Shown piece by piece: positions 49,384 through 62,994 of a stretch of DNA of 64,000 nt. The DNA is taken from IMG/VR virus record IMGVR_UViG_3300035199_001057, positions 25,131-89,130 of that record, one strand, 5' to 3'. Source of the stretch: a virus. The position numbers were made by a program, and so were the translations under genes. The first letter of the stretch is position 1. Each line of letters begins with the position of its first letter. The notes under the pieces are model-generated. The model did not search any database and was not told the origin of the DNA. It worked only from the letters and a program-made list of their open reading frames with translations.

Positions 49384-50068
49384 TTTTTTCTTCCTTCTTG
49401 GTATTAACCAAGGCTTGAATTTTATTATATAATACTGGGCTAATGTCTTTCAACTTGCGCTGGTCTCCTAAAAAATAATGTTCGAACCCGTTAGCCCAAT
49501 ATTCTTTGAGGGCTGTAATCGCATAAGGAGAGTAAAACAACTCCGCGGTTAATCCCCTCAAGGAATCATATCCTAAATCTCTATAAAGGTACATATCAAA
49601 GCTTTTATCATATTCAGGGTTTAAAAAATATACCATGTTAGCGCGCTTTGAAGCGGGAAGTAAGTGATACAAGTGCTTCCTTTTTGCCAGGAATTCTCTC
49701 TCTAGACTTTCATCTCCGTAAATATCATCATAATTTCGCGCCTCCAGGGAGTGTGCGATTTCATGAACCACATCGTCTACCATATCTTCAGCATCGTCTT
49801 GATGATTGGAAATATATATAGTTCCGTCCTTATAGAGGGCATTAAAATGCTTGCCATTTTCAGAGAAGTCGTCAAATTCTCCTATATATATATTGTCAAA
49901 ATTATCAGCTAAAGATTGGGGAATTTTAGCCCCTAGGGTTGCCAATACCAAGTCTAGATCCACCTCCGACGAGAGAGGTTCCAGCACATAAACCGGTTTT
50001 CCAAAGACTGTGTTTTCCTTGAACTCCCGTTTGATCTTTTCATTGTTATCCTGAATGTGTTTTTTCAT
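49373..50068 (-). CDS. HExxH metalloprotease-like protein, 231 aa
   Basis: I chose the ATG at 50068 (AGAGAA upstream) over a frame from 50152. The zinc motif DDVVHEIAHSLEARNYDD contains HEIAH with the third ligand probably in YGDESLEREF (Glu). The middle has repeated aromatic residues (FDMYLYRDLGYDSL, LTAELFYSPYAITALKEYW). It looks like a soluble zinc peptidase of uncertain family. The gene overlaps the next upstream gene by 23 bases. Confidence 0.65.
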   Translation of the reverse strand: MKKHIQDNNEKIKREFKENTVFGKPVYVLEPLSSEVDLDLVLATLGAKIPQSLADNFDNIYIGEFDDFSENGKHFNALYKDGTIYISNHQDDAEDMVDDVVHEIAHSLEARNYDDIYGDESLEREFLAKRKHLYHLLPASKRANMVYFLNPEYDKSFDMYLYRDLGYDSLRGLTAELFYSPYAITALKEYWANGFEHYFLGDQRKLKDISPVLYNKIQALVNTKKEEKNEV

Positions 50069-50327
50069 TATATTCTCTGAAAAGTTTTTCGCCTTCTTCA
50101 ACATCTGCCAATGCTTGTTGATAGCCGCGAATAAAGTTCTCCTCTGCGACAACCAAAAGAAACTCAGGAAACTCCTCAGCTATAGTCTTAATTATCATCT
50201 CGACGTTAACTTCCCCATTCTCTGGTTCTGTCTTTTCTCCCACATACGAAACGAGCCACTTTTTTAGCTCGGTATCCCCTTCCACTTTCTTTAAAAGGTC
50301 CGGGTTCTCATCATTATTATAACTCAT
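50046..50327 (-). CDS. Acidic helical protein, 93 aa
   Basis: I chose the ATG at 50327 (GGAGAAAAAT upstream). The product is acidic and mostly helical (NEDENPDLLKK type start, then MIIKTIAEEFPEFLLVVAEE) with a basic-free C-terminus. It lies first in the unit driven by the promoter at 50352-50380. Function is unknown. Confidence 0.5.
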   Translation of the reverse strand: MSYNNDENPDLLKKVEGDTELKKWLVSYVGEKTEPENGEVNVEMIIKTIAEEFPEFLLVVAEENFIRGYQQALADVEEGEKLFREYNEKTHSG

Positions 50328-50351
50328 ATTTTTCTCCAAGTCAATATAAAT

Positions 50352-50380
50352 ATTATATTTATTTTTTTCTAATTTTTAAA
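50352..50380 (-). promoter_or_regulatory. Sigma70-like promoter before the 93-aa gene
   Basis: TTTAAA (50375-50380) and a perfect TATAAT (50352-50357) are 17 bases apart on the minus strand. The -35 overlaps the last codons of phoH. The region also contains an AT-rich TTTATATTGA stretch. Strength is uncertain because the -35 matches only four of six bases. Confidence 0.5.
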
Positions 50381-51689
50381 GGATTTTTGCTGCGATTGAA
50401 GCGATCTTAGAACGTTCGCCCTTTACTAGGGCGATGTGGCCTGAAATTTCGTAAGATTTAAATTTTTCTACTGCGTGTGTGAGACCATTGGAGGTTTCAT
50501 CAATATAAACATTATCAATTTGTTCGATATCGCCGGTTAAAACTATTTTAGTGTTTTCGCCCACACGAGTAATAATGGTTTTCAATTCATGAGCAGTAAG
50601 ATTTTGAGCCTCGTCAATTATAATGAAAGCATTGGAAATTGATCGACCGCGGATATACGTAAGCGCCTCGACCTCAATCGTACCATCCGCCATATACATT
50701 TCAAGCGCAGCCTTATCATTTCCTAGCAAAAATTGAAGGTTGTCTTGTACTGGGGCCAGCCACGGAAGCATTTTTTCTTCTAGGGTACCCGGTAGAAAAC
50801 CAATATCCTTTCCTAGTGGTTGAATTGGCCGCGAAATCACAAGGCGTCGGTATGTCTCATTTTCCATAACTTGATGGAGGCCTGCTGCTATGGCTAATAA
50901 AGTCTTTCCTGAGCCGGCCTGGCCAACTAGTGTTACCACATCTATAGATTTGTCCTGCAGGAGGTCGAGGGCAAATATCTGCTCCTTGTTGCGTGGCTTG
51001 ACTCCCCAAAGTGGGTTCTGGATCCTTTCGTTGATACGACGAAGAGGCGTACTATACGTGATAAACCTTGCTAGCCCCGTTTTCTTTTCGTTTTGGTTGG
51101 ACACAAGCATTATAAATTGATTAGGTTGGAGGGCTAGATCTTCCTCTTCAATGAAGATGTCTTCCCCCGCGTAAAACCTATCAATAACAGGATCATCCAC
51201 TAAATGCTCTATATAGCCTGTGTATATGTGGCTCGTATCCTGGATCACCTGATCTGTAAGATAATCTTCGGTGGCTAATCCCAGCGCATCGCACTTTACC
51301 CGCATGTTAATATCGCGCGTAACTACAATAACCTTGGTGCGCGGGCGCGCACTCTTTTGGTTCAATGCCACCCCTATAATCTCGTTATCCGGAATATTAA
51401 GGTCCAAATCGGGCGGTAAATCATCGTTAACACATAATTTAACGTATAGCTTGCCGCGGCCAGCGCCCATTTTCACACCTTTATATAGGCTCCCAAATTC
51501 ACGAAGACTGTCTAAGCGGCGAATTACGGCGCGGGCATTAACACCAACGCTGTCTTGTCTTTTCTTGTGTCTATCTATTTCTTCTAGAACTTTCAAAGGA
51601 AGCACAACGTCGTTGCCGGCGAAGGCTCGAATGCTATTAGAATCAGTTAGGCACGTGCTTGTATCCAGAACATATATATTTTTTGCCAT
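50376..51689 (-). CDS. phoH: PIN-PhoH ATPase
   Basis: The 437-aa protein (ATG at 51689, GGAGAG upstream) joins a PIN-type ribonuclease domain (residues 1-130: IYVLDTSTCLTDSNSIRAF and later VIVVTRDINMRVKC) to a PhoH P-loop domain with Walker A GQAGSGKT (256-263) and Walker B FIIIDEAQN (355-363). PhoH genes are common in marine phages; the fused PIN-PhoH form is known from bacteria as an RNA helicase/nuclease. It lies next to a divergent lipoprotein gene with a shared upstream region of about 90 bases. Confidence 0.88.
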   Translation of the reverse strand: MAKNIYVLDTSTCLTDSNSIRAFAGNDVVLPLKVLEEIDRHKKRQDSVGVNARAVIRRLDSLREFGSLYKGVKMGAGRGKLYVKLCVNDDLPPDLDLNIPDNEIIGVALNQKSARPRTKVIVVTRDINMRVKCDALGLATEDYLTDQVIQDTSHIYTGYIEHLVDDPVIDRFYAGEDIFIEEEDLALQPNQFIMLVSNQNEKKTGLARFITYSTPLRRINERIQNPLWGVKPRNKEQIFALDLLQDKSIDVVTLVGQAGSGKTLLAIAAGLHQVMENETYRRLVISRPIQPLGKDIGFLPGTLEEKMLPWLAPVQDNLQFLLGNDKAALEMYMADGTIEVEALTYIRGRSISNAFIIIDEAQNLTAHELKTIITRVGENTKIVLTGDIEQIDNVYIDETSNGLTHAVEKFKSYEISGHIALVKGERSKIASIAAKIL

Positions 51690-51735
51690 ATGGGACTCTC
51701 CAAGTAAATAGTTTTCTGTTTTTTTCTTCAAAAAC

Positions 51736-51749
51736 AAAACAATTGTTTT
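51736..51749. repeat. Palindrome overlapping the divergent promoter region
   Basis: AAAACAATTGTTTT is a perfect 14-base palindrome, and it overlaps the -35 element of the plus-strand promoter. In a divergent region it is a plausible regulator-binding site. The sequence is simple enough to arise by chance in AT-rich DNA. Confidence 0.35.
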
Positions 51750-51771
51750 TTTTTCTCATAGTTATTATAAG
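51743..51771 (+). promoter_or_regulatory. Promoter for the trypsin-like lipoprotein gene
   Basis: TTGTTT (51743-51748), a 17-base spacer, and TATAAG (51766-51771) form a sigma70-type promoter on the plus strand. The predicted start point near 51778 lies only about five bases before the GTG at 51783. That favours a later start codon, or nearly leaderless translation. Confidence 0.55.
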
Positions 51772-51782
51772 AGGGTCCCATT

Positions 51783-52574
51783 GTGATCGGAGGGAATACA
51801 AACATTAAACCAATAACATATTTATTATGCGTATTAATGTTTAGTATATTCTCCTGTGGCGCTACTGCCCCAAAAAACGTCGTCCTTGGCCAAGCGCGGC
51901 AATCCTTTTTATATCTAGAGAAAAAAGTGGTGCTTGAGCAATGCGGCGATCACCGGTGCCTTAAACAAGAACTAAATTCTATGGCCTCCGGTTTTGTCAT
52001 CAAAGCTACCCCCGATGGATCCTATGGAATAACAGCCGCGCATGTGTGCGATACTAGTCTTCCACAAACTTCCACCCCTATTAAGCATGTTTCTACATAT
52101 ACAGTAACGAGTCTTATGGGCGACGAGTACAAAGCTGTTGTCCTAGCTTCCGACATCAAAAATGATATATGTTTGATCTATATCAAGGGCCTCATCAATA
52201 TTCCTGTAATAAAAATATCTAATACAGAGCCCAAACCAGGCGATACCGTATATAATATTGGCGCGCCAAGGGGCATATATCAACCGAACATGGTCCCCAT
52301 GTTTGAGGGTGTGTATAATGGCAAAGCCAGCTTGTACGCATTTTATTCTTTGCCGGCAAACCCTGGAAGTAGCGGATCAATGATTCTCAACGAAAAGGGA
52401 GAACTAGTGGGGGTTCTCCATTCTGTGTATGTCAAATTCCCCCAAGTTGTTTTGTCAGCACGCTATGACGTCATACATGAGTTTATTCGCAAAAACATTA
52501 TCAAGTATGAGACTTATAAATCTGTAATGAGTGTCTTAGAACTGAAAGACGTTTTCGCCGCGCACAAACTATAG
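51783..52574 (+). CDS. Trypsin-like serine protease lipoprotein
   Basis: This is the only plus-strand gene. The catalytic triad is visible: GITAAHVCD (His), DIKNDICLIYIKG (Asp) and LPANPGSSGSMIL (Ser), so the fold is trypsin/DegP-like without a PDZ domain. The N-terminal hydrophobic stretch (YLLCVLMFSIFSC) ends in a lipobox-like IFSC, so it is probably an outer-membrane lipoprotein. The start is unclear: GTG at 51783 opens the frame, but the best ribosome site (GGAGGG, 51789-51794) lies nine bases before an in-frame ATT at 51804. It has its own promoter and ends two bases from a convergent gene. Confidence 0.82.
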   Translation: MIGGNTNIKPITYLLCVLMFSIFSCGATAPKNVVLGQARQSFLYLEKKVVLEQCGDHRCLKQELNSMASGFVIKATPDGSYGITAAHVCDTSLPQTSTPIKHVSTYTVTSLMGDEYKAVVLASDIKNDICLIYIKGLINIPVIKISNTEPKPGDTVYNIGAPRGIYQPNMVPMFEGVYNGKASLYAFYSLPANPGSSGSMILNEKGELVGVLHSVYVKFPQVVLSARYDVIHEFIRKNIIKYETYKSVMSVLELKDVFAAHKL

Positions 52575-52576
52575 GT

Positions 52577-52909
52577 TTACTTTTTCCAAATAGACGTTCC
52601 CGCCTTATTATAAACAATGCGTATATGCTGATGGAGATACTTTGCCCTTAAATAATCTTTTGGGGCGGCCGCTCCGGAGAAGATGTCTTCGTCCATATGC
52701 CTGAAAAACATTTCGCAACAATTTTCAGTAAAAAGGTGAAAATCTTCTTTTTTGGGCGTAGGATAAGCCCGATAGACTCTTTGGAAGATTGGCTGTTTAT
52801 CAACATAGAAAGTAATGCGGTTGCCGGCTTGGAGTGGAACGTATTCGACCTTAATGGAGATTCCCGTAGGGTCGCATACATAATTTACTTCCCGGATATT
52901 TGTGCTCAT
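52577..52909 (-). CDS. Unknown protein, 110 aa
   Basis: A compact protein with mixed beta and helical segments (SIKVEYVPLQAGNRITFYV, EDFHLFTENCCEMFFRHM). No motif was recognised. The start overlaps the GAPDH gene stop by 4 bases (ATGA), so it is co-translated with that gene, and it ends two bases from the convergent lipoprotein gene. Confidence 0.55.
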   Translation of the reverse strand: MSTNIREVNYVCDPTGISIKVEYVPLQAGNRITFYVDKQPIFQRVYRAYPTPKKEDFHLFTENCCEMFFRHMDEDIFSGAAAPKDYLRAKYLHQHIRIVYNKAGTSIWKK

Positions 52910-53961
52910 ATAACAGTAAATAGATAGTCATCAAAAGATTTCATGTGCTCAATATAAGCGTCGCCACATAACCACCATAGCGCGGCAGAACAGCTACTAA
53001 GCAATGAATTGCCGTCTTGAGGGGTAAAACAAAATCCGGAAACAATAGTGTCACCTTGATAAGTAAGGGTGTGAAGGGAGGGGATAGAGACGACCGTGTG
53101 ATTGAATATTCTGCCATAATACCCGTGATCACGACCAAAAGAAAACACTCGATTTGCTGAAGTTTTGTGAGTTAGGGCTGTAAATTTATTGGCTTCGAAG
53201 GCCTTTGTGATGGACTCTACAGAGTGATGCCCTTTTATCCGCATGTTAAAACGAATAATATGCATATATTGAGTGTTAAGTTTCATGGCACTGGAAAACA
53301 GATTCATATGTTTTGTCATTGTCGCGAAAACATCTTGCGCATCTCGCGCGTGGTGTGTGCCAAAACTTTTATCTGAATGTTTGCCCACTTCTGGTGATGG
53401 TATAAAGGAGGTCTTTTGGCTGATATCATTGGCGCGCCTTATACACACAAAATCCGCTTTGACCAAATCTGTCTCGTTGGGCGCAATAGTTTTAACCAGG
53501 GAACATATATTATGGGTGTTACAACTTACAACCTGCACAAAATTTGAGTCCGAATCTTTTAATGCTTCGTCATTGATCCCAAAAGCATATGGAATTCCAA
53601 AATTCTTTTCGCTTCCCTGAGCTATGAAAACTTTTTCTGGGTATTTTACATAATGTTCTTTTTTGTGTTCGTTCCCAGCCGGTGTACAGTCAATCACAAC
53701 GTGCGCCGCTTTTAAAGCTGTCTGAAAATCGTATGCCACATCATGACCTAACTCTTTAAAAACTGGAATTAGCTCCTCATTTACAGCGAGTCTCGCCCCT
53801 CTTTTTATCAGACTATTAACTTTTGCCACTTCGTCCACTAAAGGGGTACGCTTGTGAAAGATCACATGTCCAATATTTAATTTTTTTCTAAAGTCTGCCA
53901 GAATTCCAATAAGCGGCTCACCAATGGTTCCGGTGCCGACAATTAAAATATTTTTGCGCAT
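52906..53961 (-). CDS. Archaeal-type (class II) glyceraldehyde-3-phosphate dehydrogenase homologue
   Basis: I chose the ATG at 53961 (AGAGGT upstream). Residues 4-14 (NILIVGTGTIGEPL) are the NAD(P) fold, ADKVVIDCTPAGNEHKK-like text at about 88-100 matches the archaeal TPxGxxxKN segment, and VVSCNTHNICSLVKTI contains the catalytic Cys147. The length (351 aa) equals archaeal GAPDHs. The active-site His in the C-terminal half is probably GTHHARD. Substrate may be an acyl phosphate other than glyceraldehyde-3-phosphate. It is transcribed from the promoter at 54198-54226 together with the 66-aa gene before it. Confidence 0.78.
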   Translation of the reverse strand: MRKNILIVGTGTIGEPLIGILADFRKKLNIGHVIFHKRTPLVDEVAKVNSLIKRGARLAVNEELIPVFKELGHDVAYDFQTALKAAHVVIDCTPAGNEHKKEHYVKYPEKVFIAQGSEKNFGIPYAFGINDEALKDSDSNFVQVVSCNTHNICSLVKTIAPNETDLVKADFVCIRRANDISQKTSFIPSPEVGKHSDKSFGTHHARDAQDVFATMTKHMNLFSSAMKLNTQYMHIIRFNMRIKGHHSVESITKAFEANKFTALTHKTSANRVFSFGRDHGYYGRIFNHTVVSIPSLHTLTYQGDTIVSGFCFTPQDGNSLLSSCSAALWWLCGDAYIEHMKSFDDYLFTVI

Positions 53962-53969
53962 GCGACCTC

Positions 53970-54170
53970 TTATTTCTTCTTTTTCTTTTTGGCTTTTGGT
54001 TTCGGCTTTTCGTTCCATATCTTAACTCTATAATTGGATCCGCACTTGCCGCACCTCTTTATTTTAACCAAGTCGTTATCTGCCAACACTTCTTCCTTCT
54101 TTGCGGCGGCTTCTTCGTAAGATTCAAAAATACCGAGCGTTTTCCAGCTTTTAGTGGGAGTTTCTTCCAT
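53970..54170 (-). CDS. Small zinc-ribbon-like basic protein, 66 aa
   Basis: The protein has a CxxC pair (RCGKCGSNYRVKIW) and a Lys-rich tail of about a dozen residues. The first part is charged and helical (SYEEAAAKKEEVLADNDLV). A nucleic-acid-binding role is plausible. The ATG at 54170 follows GAGGTG and the promoter at 54198-54226. Confidence 0.55.
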   Translation of the reverse strand: MEETPTKSWKTLGIFESYEEAAAKKEEVLADNDLVKIKRCGKCGSNYRVKIWNEKPKPKAKKKKKK

Positions 54171-54197
54171 AATTCACCTCTATGGTTTGTTACGTAG

Positions 54198-54226
54198 ATT
54201 ATACAACATCTTTAATTTAAAGTTAA
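54198..54226 (-). promoter_or_regulatory. Sigma70-type promoter for the GAPDH-like unit
   Basis: TTAACT (54221-54226) and a perfect TATAAT (54198-54203) are 17 bases apart on the minus strand, in the 60-base gap after the tubulin-like gene. The start point would be near 54191, about 21 bases before the ATG of the 66-aa gene, which has a GAGGTG ribosome site. Confidence 0.7.
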
Positions 54227-54230
54227 GAAA

Positions 54231-55397
54231 TTACATTCCGCCTAAAAGCGTCATTGCAATTAAACCAGGGAGGGGCTCTTTTATATACACCCCTGAAAAC
54301 AAAGTTTCTGTGCGGCCGCCGACATAAGAAAAGGCGGCTTCAAGTTGATTACTGATAACTGGATCATTAGCCATCTCTGGAGTGGTAACTAAAAGTAACA
54401 CCCCCATTTTAGGCTGCCGAGTAGGCTTGGAGCACGGGGAAGCGTTTAAGCATCCTTGGAATACAGTGGATCCTAAGTCGGGTGCGCTGGGGTTTCTTAC
54501 TACGGTGCTTCCTAAGAGCATCCGGCCTGGGGTGGCAAGACATTTCTCTAAATCTTTTGAATCGAAAGCTTGGATGGGAGAAGCCTCCGTCGCCAGCTTA
54601 AGTACCTGCGCAAATAGTTTGGCAAAATTTAAATTGGCGGCCGGGTACATGTTCAGCATGCCAACTTTTCCCCGCAGAAGGTGAAGCTGCTTTTCGTTGT
54701 CGATAATTATATGAGGATCTTTTTTAACATCTTGGAGTACTTTATTTGAATTTGATTTAATCGTGGGATTTAAAAGCTCCTGCGCGGACGGTTTGCTTAT
54801 AATATATATAACTTTGCCGGTCGCCTCAATAGATGACAAATATCGATTTAAGGATTTATGAAGCTCATAAGAAGCGCTCCCGGTTCCACCGCCTCCGCCA
54901 ATCAGCACAAAAAGCCAATCAACTTTGCCAATACGAGTTCGTAACGCATGCTCAACTAAAGCGCTATTGTCGCCAAGTACTTGTTTTCCAAGCTTTATAT
55001 CTTTTCCAACGCCGTCTGCGCCGGGAATCAAAAGAAAATTCTCCGGAGCAACTCCATCTGGTTGATCTTTTTCTGTGGTGTTAATCAAAAGGGTTTTATT
55101 AAACCCTAAGTCAAGAAAAGCTTTGGCCATTTTGCCGCCACCACCGCCGATGCCCAAAAACGCACAATTAATTGCGCTTGGAGCCACGTTGGGGGCTAGC
55201 ATTTTTTCGTCAGGAGATGGATCATCGCTATAGGCTTCTGCGAAATCAAAGTCATCAAATCCTAAAGAATCTTCTTTAGGGAGGGACCAGCTTTCATCTT
55301 CTCGTATTGGTACAAGATGAGGCTCATCTGTCGTGGAAATTTCTTCCACCTCTTCTTCAATGTCTTCGTACTCCTCGATATCCCAATCGTCACTCAT
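54231..55397 (-). CDS. FtsZ/tubulin-like GTPase
   Basis: The 388-aa protein has an acidic N-terminal extension of about 75 residues (many Glu/Asp). The tubulin/FtsZ core then follows: LGIGGGGGKMAKAF (82-95, the T1 loop), LFVLIGGGGGTGSASYELH with the GGGTGSA signature (167-175), and IIDNEKQLHLL. In FtsZ the T7 loop NxDFxD supplies two Asp residues for GTP hydrolysis; here the aligned text is NLNFAKL (255-261), with Asn257 and Lys260 in place of Asp. So filaments may form but hydrolyse slowly. PhuZ of jumbo phages is the known functional parallel; this protein looks closer to FtsZ. Confidence 0.82.
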   Translation of the reverse strand: MSDDWDIEEYEDIEEEVEEISTTDEPHLVPIREDESWSLPKEDSLGFDDFDFAEAYSDDPSPDEKMLAPNVAPSAINCAFLGIGGGGGKMAKAFLDLGFNKTLLINTTEKDQPDGVAPENFLLIPGADGVGKDIKLGKQVLGDNSALVEHALRTRIGKVDWLFVLIGGGGGTGSASYELHKSLNRYLSSIEATGKVIYIISKPSAQELLNPTIKSNSNKVLQDVKKDPHIIIDNEKQLHLLRGKVGMLNMYPAANLNFAKLFAQVLKLATEASPIQAFDSKDLEKCLATPGRMLLGSTVVRNPSAPDLGSTVFQGCLNASPCSKPTRQPKMGVLLLVTTPEMANDPVISNQLEAAFSYVGGRTETLFSGVYIKEPLPGLIAMTLLGGM

Positions 55398-55430
55398 GAT
55401 GATTTCTCCTGTGAATATGTTAATATAAGT

Positions 55431-55458
55431 AGTATAAGGGGGGATAAAAAATAGTTAA
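55431..55458 (-). promoter_or_regulatory. Promoter for the tubulin-like gene
   Basis: TTAACT (55453-55458), a 16-base spacer with a run of six Cs, and TATACT (55431-55436) lie on the minus strand between the tmRNA 3' end and the tubulin-like gene. An AGGAGAAA ribosome site precedes the ATG at 55397. Confidence 0.55.
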
Positions 55459-55461
55459 AAA

Positions 55462-55816
55462 TGGTGGAGACGTTGGGAGTCGAACCCAAGTCCAAAAAGC
55501 AATACTGATCACGTCATTCACAAGAATAGATACAATTACCGCCGTTGTACCAACCACCTAATATCCTATCAGGGAATCCATTTACCGCTCTTAATGGCGT
55601 CGGCTGCCAAAAATATCTAGTCGTAAGGTGACTAAAAATCCCTTTTTACTGATTTTTTATAAGAAGGCAATCAGCAGCCCCCTGGTTATGCCGCTAAGGC
55701 GTAATCAAATTCAACGTTATCGTTGGCTTTTATAAAGGTTAAGTATTTTGGCTGTGATACTTACACAGTCTTGCACGTTAATCAGTCTCGTTCTCTGTCG
55801 AAGCCGTTTCGTCCCC
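55462..55816 (-). ncRNA. ssrA: tmRNA (ssrA)
   Basis: The 355-base gene is complete. The 5' end GGGGACG pairs with the 3' CGTCTCC in a seven-base-pair acceptor stem (one G-U pair); the T arm is TTGGG/TTCGACT/CCCAA, and CCA is encoded, preceded by A. The tag frame (55686-55727) reads GCC AAC GAT AAC GTT GAA TTT GAT TAC GCC TTA GCG GCA TAA, that is ANDNVEFDYALAA, with the ALAA end typical of ClpXP-targeting tags. A TAAGTAT/ATACTTA stem lies just before the resume codon. tmRNA with SmpB rescues stalled ribosomes; here it would act on, or replace, the host system. No SmpB gene was recognised in the window. Confidence 0.93.
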
Positions 55817-56176
55817 ATTTCTTTCATTTTCAAAAAACGATTCAATATCGAATTTCTTAATTAGTTTTCTAAAATCAGTATAGTCAATTCCTAGGAATTT
55901 TGAACTTTCTTTTTTAGATCTACAGATACTCACCGCGGTTTTAAGTACAGCCTCCGAAGTTATAGCGCGCATAGAGTGCCATAACGGCATGCCATAATAT
56001 TTACCGCCCAGCGCCCTAGTTGAAAGCTCTAGTTTAATAGCTATAAGATCTTCTAAAGATAAATTGTTAATAGAGTTTAATACTTGTTTATTTAATTTAT
56101 CTTCTTTACTAAATTTGTTAATTATACTATAATTTTCATATAAACCATAGTATTTAGTTCTTTTCTTCCAAGTCAT
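55778..56176 (-). CDS. Unknown protein with helix-turn-helix-like C-terminus, 132 aa
   Basis: The product is highly charged; the C-terminal third (LKTAVSICRSKKESSKFLGI then DYTDFRKLIKKFDI) has the pattern of a Fis-type helix-turn-helix. Its last twelve codons and stop overlap the first 39 bases of the tmRNA gene. It is transcribed from the promoter at 56220-56248. The overlapping copies of a TACTAAATA motif upstream suggest that it may regulate itself. Function is not known. Confidence 0.6.
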   Translation of the reverse strand: MTWKKRTKYYGLYENYSIINKFSKEDKLNKQVLNSINNLSLEDLIAIKLELSTRALGGKYYGMPLWHSMRAITSEAVLKTAVSICRSKKESSKFLGIDYTDFRKLIKKFDIESFFENERNGDETASTENETD

Positions 56177-56216
56177 ACTAAATAAGAGAAATACCTAATA
56201 ATACTAAGTATTTAGT
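56148..56216. repeat. Three TACTAAATA-like motifs around the 132-aa gene start
   Basis: TAGTATTTAGT (56148-56158), ATACTAAATA (56175-56184) and ATACTAAGTATTTAGT (56201-56216) share the ACTAA/TTAGT core. The last contains the palindrome ACTAAGTATTTAGT arms. They are spaced by about 27 bases and flank the gene start and promoter, so they could be operator sites. Confidence 0.4.
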
Positions 56217-56219
56217 TTG

Positions 56220-56248
56220 ATTATATCACATTTTGAGAATTAAGTAAA
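56220..56248 (-). promoter_or_regulatory. Sigma70-type promoter for the 132-aa gene and tmRNA
   Basis: TTTACT (56243-56248) and a perfect TATAAT (56220-56225) are separated by 17 bases on the minus strand, just after the acidic 266-aa gene. Transcription would start near 56213 and run through the 132-aa gene into the tmRNA. Confidence 0.7.
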
Positions 56249-56251
56249 GGG

Positions 56252-57052
56252 TTAAATTGCGAATTCTTCGGTTTCCTCGGCATCGACGTCAAGGGGGGTC
56301 TCGTCGCCTTCGTAATCGGGAGATTCTGGTTCGCTACTTGTGATTTGAAGCTCCTCTTCAAATTTATCAAAATAGAGCTTAAGATTCGTCAGTAAGTAAT
56401 CATAAAACAGATCTCGATCTTCCGCATTGGCCAAGCTCTCAAAAGCGTCGAGGATCTGTTTTTCCACTTTGTTAAAGGTAATTGAGGCAAAGTTTCTTCC
56501 TGTTAAGTCTTCACCAGCGATGGTGAAAGTATCCTCTTCCTCTTCTTCTGTCTCTTCGTCTTCCATGTCCACATCACGAACAGGAATAAATTTATCTTCC
56601 GAACCGTCGTCGTCTACGTTAATCGTAAGATCTTGTTCTTCCAAAGGCTCTTCGGCCACTGCAGCCTCTTCTGAATCTAGATCTGCTACAACTTCAACCG
56701 GCTTGAGGGTATTTTCAATAGCGTTTAGGATGTGCGAACGGAACGAGGTGCGCTGTTCGCTTGCGCTAGTAAGCGCTTTGTACCCTTCTTCAACAATAGG
56801 GATAATATTTCTCAGCAGTTCCTCTAGTACGTTAATGCCCGTATTTTGGTGGGGCTGCGCATCGGGTACATCTGTTTTAGCAGCTTCTACAACTAATTTG
56901 CGCACAATGGCGCGGAGACGCTGCTCTGTTTTGCTTTCTTTTAGGACATCCGCTTTTTTATTCTCTAAAAAGCGCTTCAAGTCTTTTCGAATTAACTGGC
57001 GTAAACGCTTCTCTTCTTTTATTTCGTTAATCATTTCATCGCGATCAATCAT
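56252..57052 (-). CDS. Acidic protein with basic helical N-terminus, 266 aa
   Basis: Residues 1-55 are basic and helical (RLRQLIRKDLKRFLENKKAD, RLRAIVRKLVVEAAKTD). The middle is extremely acidic (SEEAAVAEEPLEEQDL, EDEETEEEEEDTF). The C-terminal third is helical again (ILDAFESLANAEDRDLFYDY). This layout recalls scaffold or core proteins of T4-like heads, and LVVEA resembles the LxE-type sites cut by prohead proteases, but no homology is claimed. Confidence 0.55.
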   Translation of the reverse strand: MIDRDEMINEIKEEKRLRQLIRKDLKRFLENKKADVLKESKTEQRLRAIVRKLVVEAAKTDVPDAQPHQNTGINVLEELLRNIIPIVEEGYKALTSASEQRTSFRSHILNAIENTLKPVEVVADLDSEEAAVAEEPLEEQDLTINVDDDGSEDKFIPVRDVDMEDEETEEEEEDTFTIAGEDLTGRNFASITFNKVEKQILDAFESLANAEDRDLFYDYLLTNLKLYFDKFEEELQITSSEPESPDYEGDETPLDVDAEETEEFAI

Positions 57053-57055
57053 ATT

Positions 57056-59179
57056 TTAGCCCTCAAGGTTGTTTAGTAAATAGTTGTAGAATTCATTAAC
57101 AATTTCGTCTTCTTCTTCTTTTTTCCCCGAACCGCCTGCGACGGCACCCGCGCCCATGGCAGATATTTCTTCCAGATCTTCTTCCTCTTCGTCCTCATCG
57201 CCGGATACGCGGCGTTTTCCCACATAGGGAGGATTGCTCAACCCGGGTTGAAATGACCCAAACATATCCGTCTCTTCTATCACTTCTTCCATCAGCCCAC
57301 GAAAAATGCCCAGATGATACTGGGCCTCCTCAATATTGGCTGTACCAAGCTTATCTTTAATTATATCATATATTTCAGGATCATAAAAGCCCATTATTTT
57401 TTCAAACGTTTCTTCGTCTGCGTGTTCAAGCGCACTGCGCAGATTAGTACCTGACATTTCTCCCACTTCGGGGATGTCAATCGAAACATGGGGGGCAATT
57501 GCGATATAACCATGCTTGCCCCAACCTTCCAGGTCTTCACCTCTGTGGTATTCGCGAAGATAGCGGGGAGAACCGTCCTTCTTTACGCCGCCCAAAGCTG
57601 CGAAGCGAGGATCTTCGGCCATATCTTTAGCCCCCACGTAGTATATAACGGCCGTAGTATTGGGATCAAAATCCTCAAGAATTTCTAGTGCCTTATAAGG
57701 GTTTTTAGTGTTTACCACCCGAGAAGAAGCAATATCGTGCTGAGACGCAATCACTTGTTTATCGGAGAAGTCAAAAGGAGAGCGCGGTGGCGAGACTTTA
57801 CCCGATGTCGCTATAAAGGTATGGTCGTAGCCCCTTTCGTCTTGAATTTTTCGAAAAACTTCCGCATGGTGGCGCCCCATGGGCTGAAATCTACCCGGGT
57901 AAATACCCACGATGTTCTCTATTCTATCAGTCTGCTCGTTTAAGCTCATTGGAGGCATATTACCCCTACCGTACTTAAATAAACCTAATAACTGATTAAT
58001 GGGGGCGAAATTGCCGGTAAATTTATACATCGCGCAATCCCCGCCTTTGTGACAGTATTGAAAAGCAAACCCTTCCACTACAGTGTCGACATTATCATGA
58101 TGTTTTAATTTTTCTAATTGGCGACGTAATATGTCATGCGCTTCGTCCTTATAGGGCCCTTGATACTTTTGAATTGCGCGAATCGCGGCTTCAACTTCTG
58201 TTTTTAACTTGGCCACCTCATGTTCATTGTCTAAAACATAAGCGCTGTGCAGTCCACGCAACAATTCCACAGCAAAGTCATGTATCGCCGCCTCAATGGG
58301 CCACATTTTGCTCTTGATGAGCCCGGGCGCGCTTTCTTTAACAAATAAGGTAATCTGATCTTTAAGATCGCGGCTTAAGCCCTTACCGATCTGGGTCAGA
58401 CTTAGGTACTCTTCTCTTTTTAATATCCGCGTCACGACTTGACGCTGCTTCTCCTCATCTAAATCGGGGACCTGTATCTTTATCTCTCGTAAAAGCGCCC
58501 TTTCTAAAAGGTCATCAATTGTAACATCGCCTGCCAATCCGGCAGCCTTAATGCGCGCTAGCGTATCGTCAATTATGCGCTCGTCTGTAATATTATTAAG
58601 CTCTAAAAAAGCAGTTCGGCGGACGCTAAAAGGCTCAGTAGCCAGTACTGCTTCGAACCTATCAATAAGAGCGTCAAGAGCAGCCGATTCCTTTTCATTT
58701 TCAGCTACTTCTAACTGGTTGTTGTCGTGGTTATAACGTTTATGACCCATCCGATGAATATTGATAACATTATCATCATAGTTGATCACATTAGCGGCCA
58801 ATGGCCCTTGGATTTCAGCGTTATAAAATATTTCCCCGTCTTCCCCAAAAATAGAAGTAATTTCTTTTTCTGAAAGCGTGCTAACGGCTTTGGCGTACGC
58901 ATCAAAAGCTTCTACATAAGCCTTCCGCGCCTTTTCGCCGCCTTGAAATTTACGAGCGAGCAGATCATCAAAAGTCATGCCGCCTTTGGCCATGTCACCC
59001 TTGTTACGGGCTGCGCGAGGTTCTCCATTAACGTAACCCAAGAAGATATTAAAACCATCTGTCTTTTCAGTGCCCACAAGTTCGCCTGCGGCCGCCTTCA
59101 TCAGAATATCGGCAATATCATCATAAGTTAAGTCTCTATTGTCATAGAGATGATTTAAATGTCCGGAAACGCCGCCCAT
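57056..59179 (-). CDS. Ligase-like nucleotidyltransferase fused to an NMNAT/NadR-like HxGH domain
   Basis: The 707-aa protein joins two nucleotidyl-transfer domains. Residues 30-390 carry polynucleotide ligase-like motifs: TEKTDGFN (K39 as nucleophile), FYNAEIQGP (about 118-126), VVEGFAFQY (368-376) and AMYKFTGNF (383-391). Residues 424-620 carry an adenylyltransferase-like domain: GIYPGRFQPMGRHHAEVF (HxGH-like at 436-438) and GEMSGTNLRSAL, the ISxTxxR-type motif of NMNAT/NadR. The C-terminus is very acidic. Possible roles are nucleic-acid repair/capping or NAD metabolism; the fusion itself is the notable point. It abuts the 86-aa gene upstream and the acidic 266-aa gene downstream. Confidence 0.7.
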   Translation of the reverse strand: MGGVSGHLNHLYDNRDLTYDDIADILMKAAAGELVGTEKTDGFNIFLGYVNGEPRAARNKGDMAKGGMTFDDLLARKFQGGEKARKAYVEAFDAYAKAVSTLSEKEITSIFGEDGEIFYNAEIQGPLAANVINYDDNVINIHRMGHKRYNHDNNQLEVAENEKESAALDALIDRFEAVLATEPFSVRRTAFLELNNITDERIIDDTLARIKAAGLAGDVTIDDLLERALLREIKIQVPDLDEEKQRQVVTRILKREEYLSLTQIGKGLSRDLKDQITLFVKESAPGLIKSKMWPIEAAIHDFAVELLRGLHSAYVLDNEHEVAKLKTEVEAAIRAIQKYQGPYKDEAHDILRRQLEKLKHHDNVDTVVEGFAFQYCHKGGDCAMYKFTGNFAPINQLLGLFKYGRGNMPPMSLNEQTDRIENIVGIYPGRFQPMGRHHAEVFRKIQDERGYDHTFIATSGKVSPPRSPFDFSDKQVIASQHDIASSRVVNTKNPYKALEILEDFDPNTTAVIYYVGAKDMAEDPRFAALGGVKKDGSPRYLREYHRGEDLEGWGKHGYIAIAPHVSIDIPEVGEMSGTNLRSALEHADEETFEKIMGFYDPEIYDIIKDKLGTANIEEAQYHLGIFRGLMEEVIEETDMFGSFQPGLSNPPYVGKRRVSGDEDEEEEDLEEISAMGAGAVAGGSGKKEEEDEIVNEFYNYLLNNLEG

Positions 59180-59440
59180 TTATTTCCCCTCTTCTAATAC
59201 CTTTACTTGTTCTTCTAAAAGCGTGATTTTTTCTTCTAATTTGCGGTTCAATTTCTTTATTTCGTTGAGATGTTGGCGCGCAACACTTAGTTGACGACTT
59301 TCGCGTTGGCTTTTGGGAATAAAATGCTCTAGAATATTAACAACAGACTCTACATAAGCGCGTACGCTCGGTCGGCTTTTAGCCTCCCCCAACAAGAATC
59401 GTTTTGTTAGTCGGTTGAGATCAACCTTCACTTTTTTCAC
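59180..59440 (-). CDS. Coiled-coil protein, 86 aa
   Basis: The C-terminal two thirds form a continuous heptad pattern (ARQHLNEIKKLNRKLEEKIT, then LLEEQVKVLEEG). The N-terminus has LTKRFLLGEAKSRPS. The start is GTG at 59440 (an alternative GTG at 59431 has a closer GAG ribosome site), with a 20-base overlap with the HExxH gene. A structural or scaffold role is inferred. Confidence 0.5.
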   Translation of the reverse strand: MKKVKVDLNRLTKRFLLGEAKSRPSVRAYVESVVNILEHFIPKSQRESRQLSVARQHLNEIKKLNRKLEEKITLLEEQVKVLEEGK

Positions 59441-60179
59441 TCAAGATATCTTGAATTACACCAGAAACCATCTCACGCAAAGCGGCTTCTTCGTCTTCTT
59501 CTAGATCGCGTATACGCGCTTGAGGGTCAATAGGGTGTGGGTCAGCTTTAATCTGTGCTTCCTCTTCTTCCTCTAAAGCTTCTTCGCTGGGGTATTCTTT
59601 CTGTACCCCTTCGTAGTTATCGATGAGGTTAACCACGGGCACGATATCTTCGTTAATTTCTTGTTTTTCGGGCGCTTTAAAGCCCCATTTTTCCATCAAG
59701 AGGGTGTTGAGTTCTTGATTTTTCCAATCTTTTGTCGACATTGATCGATCTCCTTTGTTTTTAGTGCTTCTATAAATAGTTTCATAAAGCTGAATATTGC
59801 TACTCTTTAAATTGTCTTCCCAGTCGCGAAAAAATAAATTTCCACATTCGTAAGCTTCTCGTTCCATTTCTCGCAAGTGTTCGTTGTTTTGAGCGTAGCC
59901 CTCTTCCGTGGCGCCATGCTCAGATCCTAGATCTCCGCGGCAATTTTGCATATGATGAACTAGTTCGTGCGACAGAGAGCGCAATATGTCTTTAGGGTGC
60001 CGCGCCGACGTATATACTGTGATTTTCATCGTCCCGGGCTCATAGGCCGCAGTGCGACCCAGCGGGTTTTTACTGTTGGCTGTATCTTCTAGAAACTCAA
60101 CCGCGGGTTCCTCCGTAAGAGAAAATTTCTTAATAAAAGAAGCAACGAGATTATCGGATAGTTTTTGTAGATTTTGCAT
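59421..60179 (-). CDS. HExxH zinc-peptidase-like protein, 252 aa
   Basis: I chose the ATG at 60179 (AAGG five bases upstream); a longer frame begins at 60203/60200 without a ribosome site. The zinc motif is SLSHELVHHMQNCRGDLGSE (HELVH), with a downstream MEREAYECG (Glu) as third ligand. The C-terminal half is acidic, contains LNTLLMEKWGFKAPEK and ends QDILSEKSEG. The protein could be a processing peptidase or an inert structural relative. It overlaps the 86-aa gene by 20 bases. Confidence 0.65.
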   Translation of the reverse strand: MQNLQKLSDNLVASFIKKFSLTEEPAVEFLEDTANSKNPLGRTAAYEPGTMKITVYTSARHPKDILRSLSHELVHHMQNCRGDLGSEHGATEEGYAQNNEHLREMEREAYECGNLFFRDWEDNLKSSNIQLYETIYRSTKNKGDRSMSTKDWKNQELNTLLMEKWGFKAPEKQEINEDIVPVVNLIDNYEGVQKEYPSEEALEEEEEAQIKADPHPIDPQARIRDLEEDEEAALREMVSGVIQDILSEKSEG

Positions 60180-60254
60180 AGAAGCCTTATAGTGTAACAT
60201 CAATAATTAGTTATATTAACGGCTTACTACTAGAAATATATAGATTTAAATAGA

Positions 60255-60614
60255 TTACCAATATCCGTTTGTTATCTCACCAATCGCGTTGTGAAAACAA
60301 ATTACTTCGTACGCAATACACGCATGTTTATAAAAGATATACCCATAAATAAGTAAACAAACAGCTAAAGCATACTTGACAATTGGATATTGGCGTATTT
60401 TCCACAAGATAATTCCGCTAAGAAAAGTCACCCCCAGTTTCACATACATAAAAAGGCTTAAATCTATATCCATCAACGCAGCCATCAGCGGGTTGGCTTC
60501 ATCAGCGTAATTATGGTTAACCCAGAGCGCAGACGCAAACGCATCAATTATACAAAATCCCATCAAAAAGACTAAAAGTACACCGAAGATCTGATCATAA
60601 TATTTAATTTTCAC
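60255..60614 (-). CDS. Small four-helix membrane protein (DUF5658-like), 119 aa
   Basis: I chose the GTG at 60614 because GAGGAGG lies nine bases upstream; a longer frame begins at 60674. Four hydrophobic segments are visible: FGVLLVFLMGFCIIDAFASA, DLSLFMYVKLGVTFLSGIIL, YPIVKYALAVCLLIYGYIF and a shorter last one. The motif ANPLMAALMD followed by VKLGVT matches the DUF5658 pattern (E/ANPLM...K). It overlaps the small lipoprotein gene by 11 bases, so the two are coupled. Confidence 0.6.
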   Translation of the reverse strand: MKIKYYDQIFGVLLVFLMGFCIIDAFASALWVNHNYADEANPLMAALMDIDLSLFMYVKLGVTFLSGIILWKIRQYPIVKYALAVCLLIYGYIFYKHACIAYEVICFHNAIGEITNGYW

Positions 60615-60840
60615 GAAGAGTATCCTCCTCGCAAGAATTACTTGCGTCTCCTTCCACCTGTTGAAGGCGCGCAATCAGTTCCAAGAGATCTTCCTTTGTA
60701 AGACATGTACCTTCTAACCCCTCTAAAGCCTCGGATACAATACTTTCACACTTGCTGGTTGCGTTGTCTATCCTTTTCTCTATGCCACACCCTATAATAA
60801 GAAACATCGAAAATAGAGTAGCTAAAGTGGCATTTTTCAT
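60604..60840 (-). CDS. Small lipoprotein, 78 aa
   Basis: The signal sequence MKNATLATLFSMFLIIGCG has a lipobox ending in Cys18. The mature part is short, acidic and contains three more cysteines (CESIVSEALEGLEGTCL, SNSCEEDT). The ATG overlaps the stop of the MopE-repeat lipoprotein gene by 4 bases and its own end overlaps the membrane protein gene, so the three form one unit. Small lipoproteins of phages often alter the host envelope (for example to block superinfection), which is possible here. Confidence 0.65.
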   Translation of the reverse strand: MKNATLATLFSMFLIIGCGIEKRIDNATSKCESIVSEALEGLEGTCLTKEDLLELIARLQQVEGDASNSCEEDTLREN

Positions 60841-62933
60841 GGCGTCTCAGGCGCCTCCTCCCCGCATGCGGTTTCACTCAATATTTCGGACAGGTGATTA
60901 TAGATTTCCGTGGTGGATGTGGAAAGGGGATACCATTTTCCTTTATCGCTGGCAATTGAGAGTGCTTCCCACCCCGCATTACCAGTTTTATAATAAGAGG
61001 GAGAAAAAGTATATATCGACAGGCGTGGATCTTGAGGGATTAAATTCACGAGAATGTTTTGGTTAATGTAACCACCATATGGCCCTCCGGAATTGGGATT
61101 GACAGGTGCCACTACATCAGATGTTAGATAACTTTGCCCCTGCTCATCCGAAAATACTATAATTACATGATTTGCGTTCGGCCGCCACTGTACATTAAAA
61201 CTTTGCAACGTGGGATCTGAATCCACAGCAGAACTCCACTTAAGATCCTTCTTCTGATAAGGGAGTGCCGATGGGGGGATAATCCCTTCAAATAGAAGGT
61301 ATATCACATCATAAAGCATTTCATAGCCACCTTGTGTTTGGAACCCGGTACCGGCAATTGTCTGATAAAAGGTGTCAAAAGGCTCTAAATCTGATACGAT
61401 AACCGCCTTTTCGATCCAATCTGCCTGATAGGTGGGGGCGTATATAAAGCCCCACTTGACGGCGCTTTGATCGGCGAATTCATTGGAGAAAATGTTGAAT
61501 GCTGCGAGCACCGCGTTGATTTCTTCATCCATGGAGCCTGACCCATCGACAATAAAAATGATATCGGTATCTTGCATTTCCTTGCCATCATCAATCTTTC
61601 CATCACAATTGTCATCCTGGCCATTACACGCGTCTTTATCGTCCGGAATTACCTCATCTAGACACAAATTGGGGACGAAAACCTCACCGGTGCCGTACAT
61701 AGCATAATTTCCCCATTCTCCAGCATCGCAGATCATCTCGCCTGGCATACATATTCCGATATCTATGGTCTCAAGTGGCCCGGTATAGCACGCTTGGGTC
61801 AGATTTTCATCGATTAATTGGTTACAATTTTCATCATGATTGTTACAAACTTCTTCTAGGATAACTTGACCCACCAAAGGGTCACATGGTACCGGTCCCG
61901 CTGCGGGGACATAAGCACAAAGCGCTTGGCACTCACTCATGGCCAACGCGTCGCACTCTGGAGTAACACATTCACATGTCTTAAACCCCTGGCCGCACTT
62001 TAAAGGCGGTTCAGCGCAAGGATACAATACCCCTATTTGGTCCCAAGTACACAGACAATTGAGTTCTTCGTCAATCATCCCGTCACAATCATTATCTTGG
62101 CCATCGCAAACTTCAGGGAGCGGTTGTTCCGCGGTACAGAACCACGCGCCGTCCACACAGATATTAATATTCTCTTCACAAACAGTATTACATTTGTCAA
62201 TCAACCCTTCATCGGTCTTACCATTGCAATCATTATCTACCCCATCACATATTTCTTCAGGGGTGGGCCCACAGAGGCCACATTCGTTCAATTGGCCCTC
62301 ATCCACTAAATCATCGCAATCGTTATCGACATAATCACACACTTCTTCAGCCGGAAGGGGAGCATCACAAGCTATAACCTCCCCATCAACACAAACCCCT
62401 AGGCCATCGCCGCATATAGTATTACAGGGATATTCGCCTTCGTCGGTGGTACCATCACAATCATTATCCAAACCATCACAGATTTCTTCTATACAAGGGT
62501 CACAAACACCATACTCAAAGAACCCTTTGTGACAATAGACTTTAAGGAACCCATTTACCCCATCAGCCGTAACACATTCTTCTTCGCGAATAACCTCATT
62601 GGTGGGAATACACTCTAAAACCTCTTCACATTCGCCCATTTCAATGATTTTGTTCCCATCACATGTATCTACAATGGCCTTGGCTCGCCAAACCTCATCT
62701 AGAGGCGGACAGTAATAATACCACGTGTCATAACAGTCATCTTCATATTTTTTTTTGGAATATTCTATGTAAGCGTCGGAAGGAGTCCAAACTAGAATGT
62801 CCGGAATATTATATTGTATGGTTCCGCCCGATCCGCCCTGTTTTTTAGAGCAACTGGTCACTAAAACCATGGCTAAACACACTAGCATGAATTTTTTGAA
62901 GATATTCGATGCTAATAATGTGTACCTTTTCAT
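60837..62933 (-). CDS. Lipoprotein with six MopE-type metal-binding repeats and a von Willebrand A domain
   Basis: I chose the ATG at 62933, which gives a normal lipoprotein signal (KFMLVCLAMVLVTSC, Cys28). Between residues 148 and 452 six repeats of the EICDGLDNDCDGxxDEG type occur (about 150, 198, 228, 274, 361 and 435), the putative metal-binding motif of MopE and myxobacterial surface proteins. A von Willebrand A domain follows, with IFIVDGSGSMDEE (MIDAS DxSxS at 463-467). The 698-aa protein is rich in cysteine and acidic residues. It would sit on the outside of the host envelope. This type of protein is unusual in a phage and suggests capture from a host. Confidence 0.85.
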   Translation of the reverse strand: MKRYTLLASNIFKKFMLVCLAMVLVTSCSKKQGGSGGTIQYNIPDILVWTPSDAYIEYSKKKYEDDCYDTWYYYCPPLDEVWRAKAIVDTCDGNKIIEMGECEEVLECIPTNEVIREEECVTADGVNGFLKVYCHKGFFEYGVCDPCIEEICDGLDNDCDGTTDEGEYPCNTICGDGLGVCVDGEVIACDAPLPAEEVCDYVDNDCDDLVDEGQLNECGLCGPTPEEICDGVDNDCNGKTDEGLIDKCNTVCEENINICVDGAWFCTAEQPLPEVCDGQDNDCDGMIDEELNCLCTWDQIGVLYPCAEPPLKCGQGFKTCECVTPECDALAMSECQALCAYVPAAGPVPCDPLVGQVILEEVCNNHDENCNQLIDENLTQACYTGPLETIDIGICMPGEMICDAGEWGNYAMYGTGEVFVPNLCLDEVIPDDKDACNGQDDNCDGKIDDGKEMQDTDIIFIVDGSGSMDEEINAVLAAFNIFSNEFADQSAVKWGFIYAPTYQADWIEKAVIVSDLEPFDTFYQTIAGTGFQTQGGYEMLYDVIYLLFEGIIPPSALPYQKKDLKWSSAVDSDPTLQSFNVQWRPNANHVIIVFSDEQGQSYLTSDVVAPVNPNSGGPYGGYINQNILVNLIPQDPRLSIYTFSPSYYKTGNAGWEALSIASDKGKWYPLSTSTTEIYNHLSEILSETACGEEAPETP

Positions 62934-62942
62934 CCTATAGTA

Positions 62943-62951
62943 ATTATAGCA
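62943..62951 (-). promoter_or_regulatory. Extended -10 promoter for the lipoprotein unit
   Basis: TGCTATAAT on the minus strand (62943-62951) is an extended -10 element (TGnTATAAT). No good -35 is visible. The predicted start point, near 62936, is only about three bases before the ATG at 62933, so the transcript may be nearly leaderless. Confidence 0.5.
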
Positions 62952-62994
62952 GAAAAAATGCTTTTTAACTAGGTTTATGAACAAATGTTCGTTA

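What the first reader, a model, noticed from the sequence alone, without database searches (positions are those of the whole stretch)
55462..55816. Phage-type window encodes a complete tmRNA
The acceptor stem, T arm, CCA and an in-frame tag ANDNVEFDYALAA all fit tmRNA. tmRNA genes are rare in phages. A phage copy may replace a host tmRNA inactivated during infection, or tag particular proteins. No SmpB gene was recognised here.
Basis: partly seen in the sequence, partly recalled or inferred. Interest (0 to 1): 0.82.

Follow-up and report, generated by a model that had tools for sequence, protein, structure and literature searches.

The report
Phage tmRNA fused to regulator gene
An uncultivated phage carries a complete, well-conserved ribosome-rescue RNA (tmRNA), as some other phages do, but here its gene starts inside the end of a protein gene and seems to have lost its own promoter, so one transcript probably has to serve as both.

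Summary
Window 55462-55816, minus strand, is a full-length one-piece tmRNA (Rfam 94.3 bits, E 1.9e-35; ARAGORN tag ANDNVEFDYALAA). It lies inside an 89-kb phage record. Its tag is under purifying selection (79% synonymous differences; about 22% expected). smpB is absent from this record and from 30 related phage records, so host SmpB is presumably used.

Phage tmRNAs are already known (402 of 18,146 phage genomes in one survey). Specific here: (1) it belongs to a group of large uncultivated phages related through a neighbouring tubulin/FtsZ-like gene; all seven searched records of at least 118 kb carry a full tmRNA. (2) The tag pattern ANDNxxFxYALAA occurs in 62 viral contigs and in none of 84,980 species genomes. 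(3) A Fis-type HTH gene runs 39 nt into the tmRNA in frame. The overlap is shared by 12 distinct homologues, apparently from one origin, and goes with loss of the promoter that sister phages keep before their tmRNA. tmRNA maturation should therefore remove the regulator mRNA's stop codon: a built-in nonstop message (inferred, not shown).

In passing: sister phages keep an uncatalogued, covariation-supported RNA between regulator and tmRNA.

Verdict: genuine; a new variant of a known kind.

The parts
55462..55816 (-). one-piece tmRNA gene (ssrA), 355 nt
55686..55727 (-). tag reading frame, GCC resume codon to TAA: ANDNVEFDYALAA*
   Evidence: nt 90-131; selection on the peptide
55810..55816 (-). 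acceptor stem 5' strand GGGGACG
55462..55472 (-). acceptor stem 3' strand CGUCUCC (G3-U70 wobble), discriminator A and encoded CCA
55473..55489 (-). T arm with TTCGACT loop
55778..56176 (-). P0002, 132-aa Fis-type helix-turn-helix protein gene; TAA stop lies inside the tmRNA
55778..55816 (-). 39-nt in-frame overlap: the last 13 codons (12 amino acids and stop) of P0002 are tmRNA nt 1-39
56220..56248 (-). predicted extended -10 promoter TTTACT-17-TATAAT upstream of P0002, likely start of the P0002-tmRNA transcript
54231..55397 (-). P0001, tubulin/FtsZ-superfamily GTPase gene downstream of the tmRNA; marker of the phage group

Best explanation
This is a working-type phage tmRNA. It probably acts in the infected cell with host SmpB, alanyl-tRNA synthetase, EF-Tu and ClpXP-type proteases: it frees ribosomes stalled on broken mRNAs and adds A-ANDNVEFDYALAA to the unfinished proteins. 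In the window's lineage it has no promoter of its own and is probably the 3' part of the transcript of a Fis-type HTH regulator gene (P0002), whose last 13 codons, stop included, lie within the tmRNA. When RNase P cuts the tmRNA 5' end, the regulator message should lose its stop codon and become a nonstop message, so the regulator is made intact only from uncut transcripts and is otherwise tagged by the tmRNA it was transcribed with. Shown by sequence: complete tmRNA, conserved tag, gene overlap, loss of the local promoter signal, absence of phage smpB in the records searched. Inferred: host SmpB use, co-transcription, RNase P cutting in vivo, and the feedback.
For: tmRNA calls (1, 2). Tag under purifying selection in tmRNAs found without using the tag: 556 synonymous against 151 non-synonymous single-base codon differences, 79%, where random change would give about 22%. 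Conserved neighbourhood P0002-tmRNA-P0001 in sister phages. Full-length tmRNA in 7 of 7 P0001-bearing records of at least 118 kb. No smpB in 31 records, with the control finding it in 10 bacteria. Overlap in 12 distinct P0002 homologues, same frame, stop ending at tmRNA nt 33 or 39; junction lengths differ only by multiples of 3. All 12 fall in one supported set, 100/99, with two partial non-overlapping rows nested inside. Promoter score at the P0002 end: 7-9 in overlapping members, 9-11 in the others, which mostly show TTGACA-17-TATAxT (Mann-Whitney p 4.6e-5). L228 carries P0002-tRNA-Asn-tRNA-Thr-tmRNA with no promoter signal in the 120 nt before the tmRNA, as expected of a processed multi-gene transcript. 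RNase P processing of the tmRNA 5' end is established (PMC3985003, abstract).
Against: No expression data. The host is unknown, so its tag and its SmpB are unknown. The 12 overlapping members share one origin, so the promoter contrast is not 12 independent events. The upstream promoter is clear in only about 5 of 12 overlapping members, and L134 has a fair promoter inside the P0002 gene. The overlap could be harmless genome packing: tmRNA nt 25-33 often holds a stop in this frame anyway. Pseudoknot regions align to the Rfam model with low confidence. The record is a linear fragment, so smpB could lie in the missing part.
Confidence: 0.72

Rival explanations
1. An ordinary phage tmRNA; the overlap with P0002 is neutral packing with no regulatory effect, and transcription simply starts upstream.
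For: Phage genomes are tightly packed; other phage tmRNAs here sit 3-8 nt from, or 8 nt into, unrelated upstream reading frames (L203, L204, L214, L220, L230). The overlap arose once.
Against: The frame is kept across deep divergence (window against L222: 45% protein identity) with junction changes only in multiples of three; the local promoter signal is lost at the same time.
Confidence: 0.5
2. A host tmRNA gene carried at the end of an integrated prophage, so not a phage gene.
For: tmRNA 3' ends are common integration sites (discussed in PMC9004378), and many IMG/VR contigs with a tmRNA 3' end may be of that kind.
Against: The neighbourhood is syntenic in many independent viral contigs; the record carries lytic myovirus-type genes; the tag pattern is absent from 84,980 species genomes.
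Confidence: 0.03
3. A decayed or decoy tmRNA that blocks host rescue, as reported for the reading-frame-less form of phage DS6A (PMC11915505).
For: A phage precedent for an inhibitory tmRNA-like RNA exists.
Against: Full length, intact tag frame under purifying selection, G3-U70, T arm and encoded CCA kept.
Confidence: 0.05
4. The phage tmRNA mainly re-routes tagged proteins: its longer acidic tag is read by a different adaptor or protease balance than the host tag, for instance to recycle host proteins.
For: The tag is phage-specific at the pattern tested; recycling of host proteins was proposed for phage Melnitz (PMC9004378).
Against: It keeps the AND start and the ALAA end of ordinary degradation tags; nothing shows a different fate.
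Confidence: 0.2

Closest known systems
Two-piece tmRNA of OM43 phage Melnitz and pelagimyophages (PMC9004378)
   Same: Complete tmRNA in a marine myophage; placed beside a transcription-factor gene; Melnitz ssrA carries a regulatory RNA (glutamine riboswitch), and sister phages of the window carry a structured RNA before their tmRNA.
   Different: Here one-piece, not permuted; tag ANDNVEFDYALAA; no similarity to any isolate phage found for the tmRNA or either neighbour gene; reading-frame overlap; the sister-phage leader RNA matches no Rfam family.
tmRNAs of isolate phages (Streptomyces BE phages and others) and of huge phages (PMC7162821)
   Same: Phage-encoded tmRNA gene found by ARAGORN or Rfam.
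   Different: Some huge phages in that study also encode SmpB; the 31 records searched here do not. No in-frame fusion to a protein gene turned up in the papers read (not an exhaustive search).
E. coli arfA (PMC10107115, abstract)
   Same: As an analogy only: an mRNA without a stop codon whose product is repressed by trans-translation.
   Different: P0002 is a Fis-type HTH protein, not a rescue factor; here the stop codon would be lost through tmRNA maturation, which is inferred only.

Membership tests
one-piece tmRNA (RF00023) | Full-length covariance-model match above the gathering score | tested here: met
   94.3 bits, cut-off 47, model 1-374
one-piece tmRNA (RF00023) | tRNA-like domain: acceptor stem with G3-U70, T arm, CCA | tested here: met
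   acceptor and T-arm pairs across 48 relatives, some with changes on both sides
one-piece tmRNA (RF00023) | Tag frame with alanine resume codon, stop, degradation-type C terminus | tested here: met
   GCC...TAA, ANDNVEFDYALAA; purifying selection
one-piece tmRNA (RF00023) | Pseudoknots PK1-PK4 | tested here: inconclusive
   Model aligned end to end, but with low posterior probability and unpaired columns in the PK2-PK3 region
one-piece tmRNA (RF00023) | Non-permuted order of the two halves | tested here: met
   ARAGORN and Rfam standard form
trans-translation system | SmpB partner encoded with the tmRNA | tested here: not met
   Not encoded in 1 + 30 phage records; would have to come from the host. 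This does not bear on the RNA being a tmRNA.
trans-translation system | Expression, processing, alanylation, tagging | not testable with these tools
   needs experiments

The most novel reading that the evidence does not exclude
A phage tmRNA gene wired into a self-limiting circuit: maturation of the tmRNA cuts the stop codon off the regulator message that carries it, and the resulting nonstop product is tagged by the same tmRNA. In sister phages the same position is held by a new structured leader RNA, so tmRNA output would be regulated in two different ways in one phage group.
Probability: 0.25. Interest if true: 0.78.

Novelty: new variant of a known kind. Interest (0 to 1): 0.5.

Why it matters
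It shows a tmRNA kept as a standard gene in a group of large phages, with a tag not found in sequenced bacterial species, which argues that phages gain from their own rescue RNA. The gene overlap offers a simple, testable example of an RNA whose maturation would make its own substrate.

Tried and rejected
Nucleotide relatives in isolate phages: none for window 50000-62000 or for the tmRNA; none by protein for P0001 or P0002. A prophage-end artefact was considered and rejected on synteny. RF04321 (permuted tmRNA) hits in sister loci overlap the ordinary tmRNA and are taken as cross-hits. The sister leader RNA was searched for in the window and its record and is not there. Tag selection was first counted on sequences fetched by the tag pattern, which is biased, and was repeated on loci fetched through P0001. 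Literature searches found no paper on a protein gene overlapping tmRNA in this way, but the library is incomplete.

Full report
Observation. The window's only tmRNA is at 55462-55816 on the minus strand. Rfam RF00023 covers the same bases end to end at 94.3 bits, E 1.9e-35. The sequence lies in an 89,130-base IMG/VR virus record of which the window is 25131-89130. Phage character is supported by a baseplate wedge protein, PhoH, primase, SbcCD and a RuvC-like resolvase. The acceptor stem has the G3-U70 wobble that marks alanine tmRNAs, followed by a T arm and an encoded CCA. Among 48 related phage tmRNAs ending in CCA, 44 keep G3-U70, and other acceptor and T-arm pairs change on both sides while staying paired.

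Tag. The tag is ANDNVEFDYALAA, 13 residues. A codon-degenerate search for ANDNxxFxYALAA found 62 viral contigs and none of 84,980 bacterial and archaeal species genomes. In tmRNAs found through the neighbouring gene and not through the tag, 79% of single-base codon differences are synonymous, where random change would give about 22%. The peptide itself is therefore under selection.

Clade. The downstream gene P0001 belongs to the tubulin/FtsZ superfamily (Pfam Tubulin matched in 18 of 18 members at loose cut-off, best 1e-8; PDB profile match 3zid, E 3.8e-8). It has 79 relatives among viral contigs and none among isolate phages. In the nearer relatives the order P0002-tmRNA-P0001 recurs. In more distant ones a full-length tmRNA is often elsewhere in the record: all seven searched P0001-bearing records of at least 118 kb have one. 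smpB is in none of 31 records searched, with a working control. Since the records may be fragments, this makes host SmpB likely but does not prove it.

Overlap. P0002 is a 132-aa protein with a Fis-type helix-turn-helix (weak Pfam HTH_8, HTH_28 and HTH_29 matches across homologues, PDB profile match to Fis at E 0.04). Its gene ends with TAA at 55778-55780, 39 nt inside the tmRNA. Homologues in the same lineage end the same way...SFFE-x-GGETVSTE..., in which GGETVSTE is read from tmRNA nt 1-24. In outlying homologues the protein ends near SFFE and the tmRNA begins 37-290 nt later. A tree of P0002 without its C-terminal end puts the 12 overlapping members in one supported set, with two partial, non-overlapping rows nested inside: one gain and later losses is the simplest reading.

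Promoter. Non-overlapping members have TTGACA-17-TATAxT directly after P0002 in most cases; overlapping members have nothing there beyond shuffled sequence (scores 9-11 against 7-9, p 4.6e-5). These sequences are related, so the p-value overstates independence. In the window the best promoter signal is an extended -10 promoter upstream of P0002 at 56248-56220. In L228, tRNA-Asn and tRNA-Thr genes sit between P0002 and the tmRNA, with no promoter signal in the 120 nt before the tmRNA. The likely reading is a shared transcript from which the tmRNA is cut. RNase P makes tmRNA 5' ends (PMC3985003); such a cut would leave P0002 mRNA without a stop. The arfA gene of E. coli is a known case of a stop-less message repressed by trans-translation (PMC10107115). 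Whether the phage uses its overlap in this way is not shown.

Prior knowledge. Phage tmRNAs are known: 402 of 18,146 phage genomes in one survey, with a two-piece tmRNA and a glutamine riboswitch in Melnitz (PMC9004378); huge phages carry tmRNA and SmpB (PMC7162821); a reading-frame-less form in phage DS6A inhibits host tmRNA (PMC11915505). The finding is thus a new variant of a known kind.

Side result. In sister phages L131, L132, L138, L139, L257, L211, L395 and L401 the space between P0002 and tmRNA holds a structured RNA of about 125-160 nt. With two pseudoknot helices included, 92.9% of cells pair and 16 of 36 pairs show changes on both sides (29 such cells; shuffles average 8.7, none of 500 as high). 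The alignment was fitted to a model of the nested helices, which favours them; the pseudoknot helices were not in the model. No Rfam family matches it, nor does any isolate phage. Shorter relatives followed by a T-rich, terminator-like stretch occur away from any detected tmRNA in L396, L397 and L399. It is absent from the window's record.

Noticed in passing
L131:1179-1334, L132:784-938, L138:4397-4556, L139:4340-4499, L257:4604-4747, L211:2522-2644, L395:4461-4610(-), L401:713-858(-): Uncatalogued structured RNA of about 125-160 nt between the P0002 homologue and the tmRNA, with covarying helices and two pseudoknots; no Rfam or isolate-phage match. Candidate regulatory leader of tmRNA.
   Followed up: partly
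L396:3144-3271(-), L397:4302-4429, L399:59-186: Shorter relatives of that RNA, sharing the hairpin CCTTCAATGACTCTCTTGAAGG and its pseudoknot partner GGAGTC, followed by a T-rich terminator-like stretch and with no tmRNA found in the locus.
   Followed up: partly
window 54231-55397(-): Tubulin/FtsZ-superfamily GTPase gene conserved in many uncultivated phages and absent from isolate phages.
   Followed up: partly
L228:2923-3388(-): tRNA-Asn and tRNA-Thr genes between the P0002 homologue and the tmRNA, apparently in one transcript.
   Followed up: yes
L204, L230: Reading frame of at least 322 codons ending with TGA at tmRNA nt 6-8: another overlap of a protein gene with a phage tmRNA.
   Followed up: no
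window 60837-62984(-): 715-aa protein with repeated MopE-type metal-binding motifs (Pfam PF11617) in a phage.
   Followed up: no
window 25669-48361: Many sugar-related genes: UDP-glucose dehydrogenase, glycosyltransferases, methyltransferase, B12-binding radical SAM protein.
   Followed up: no
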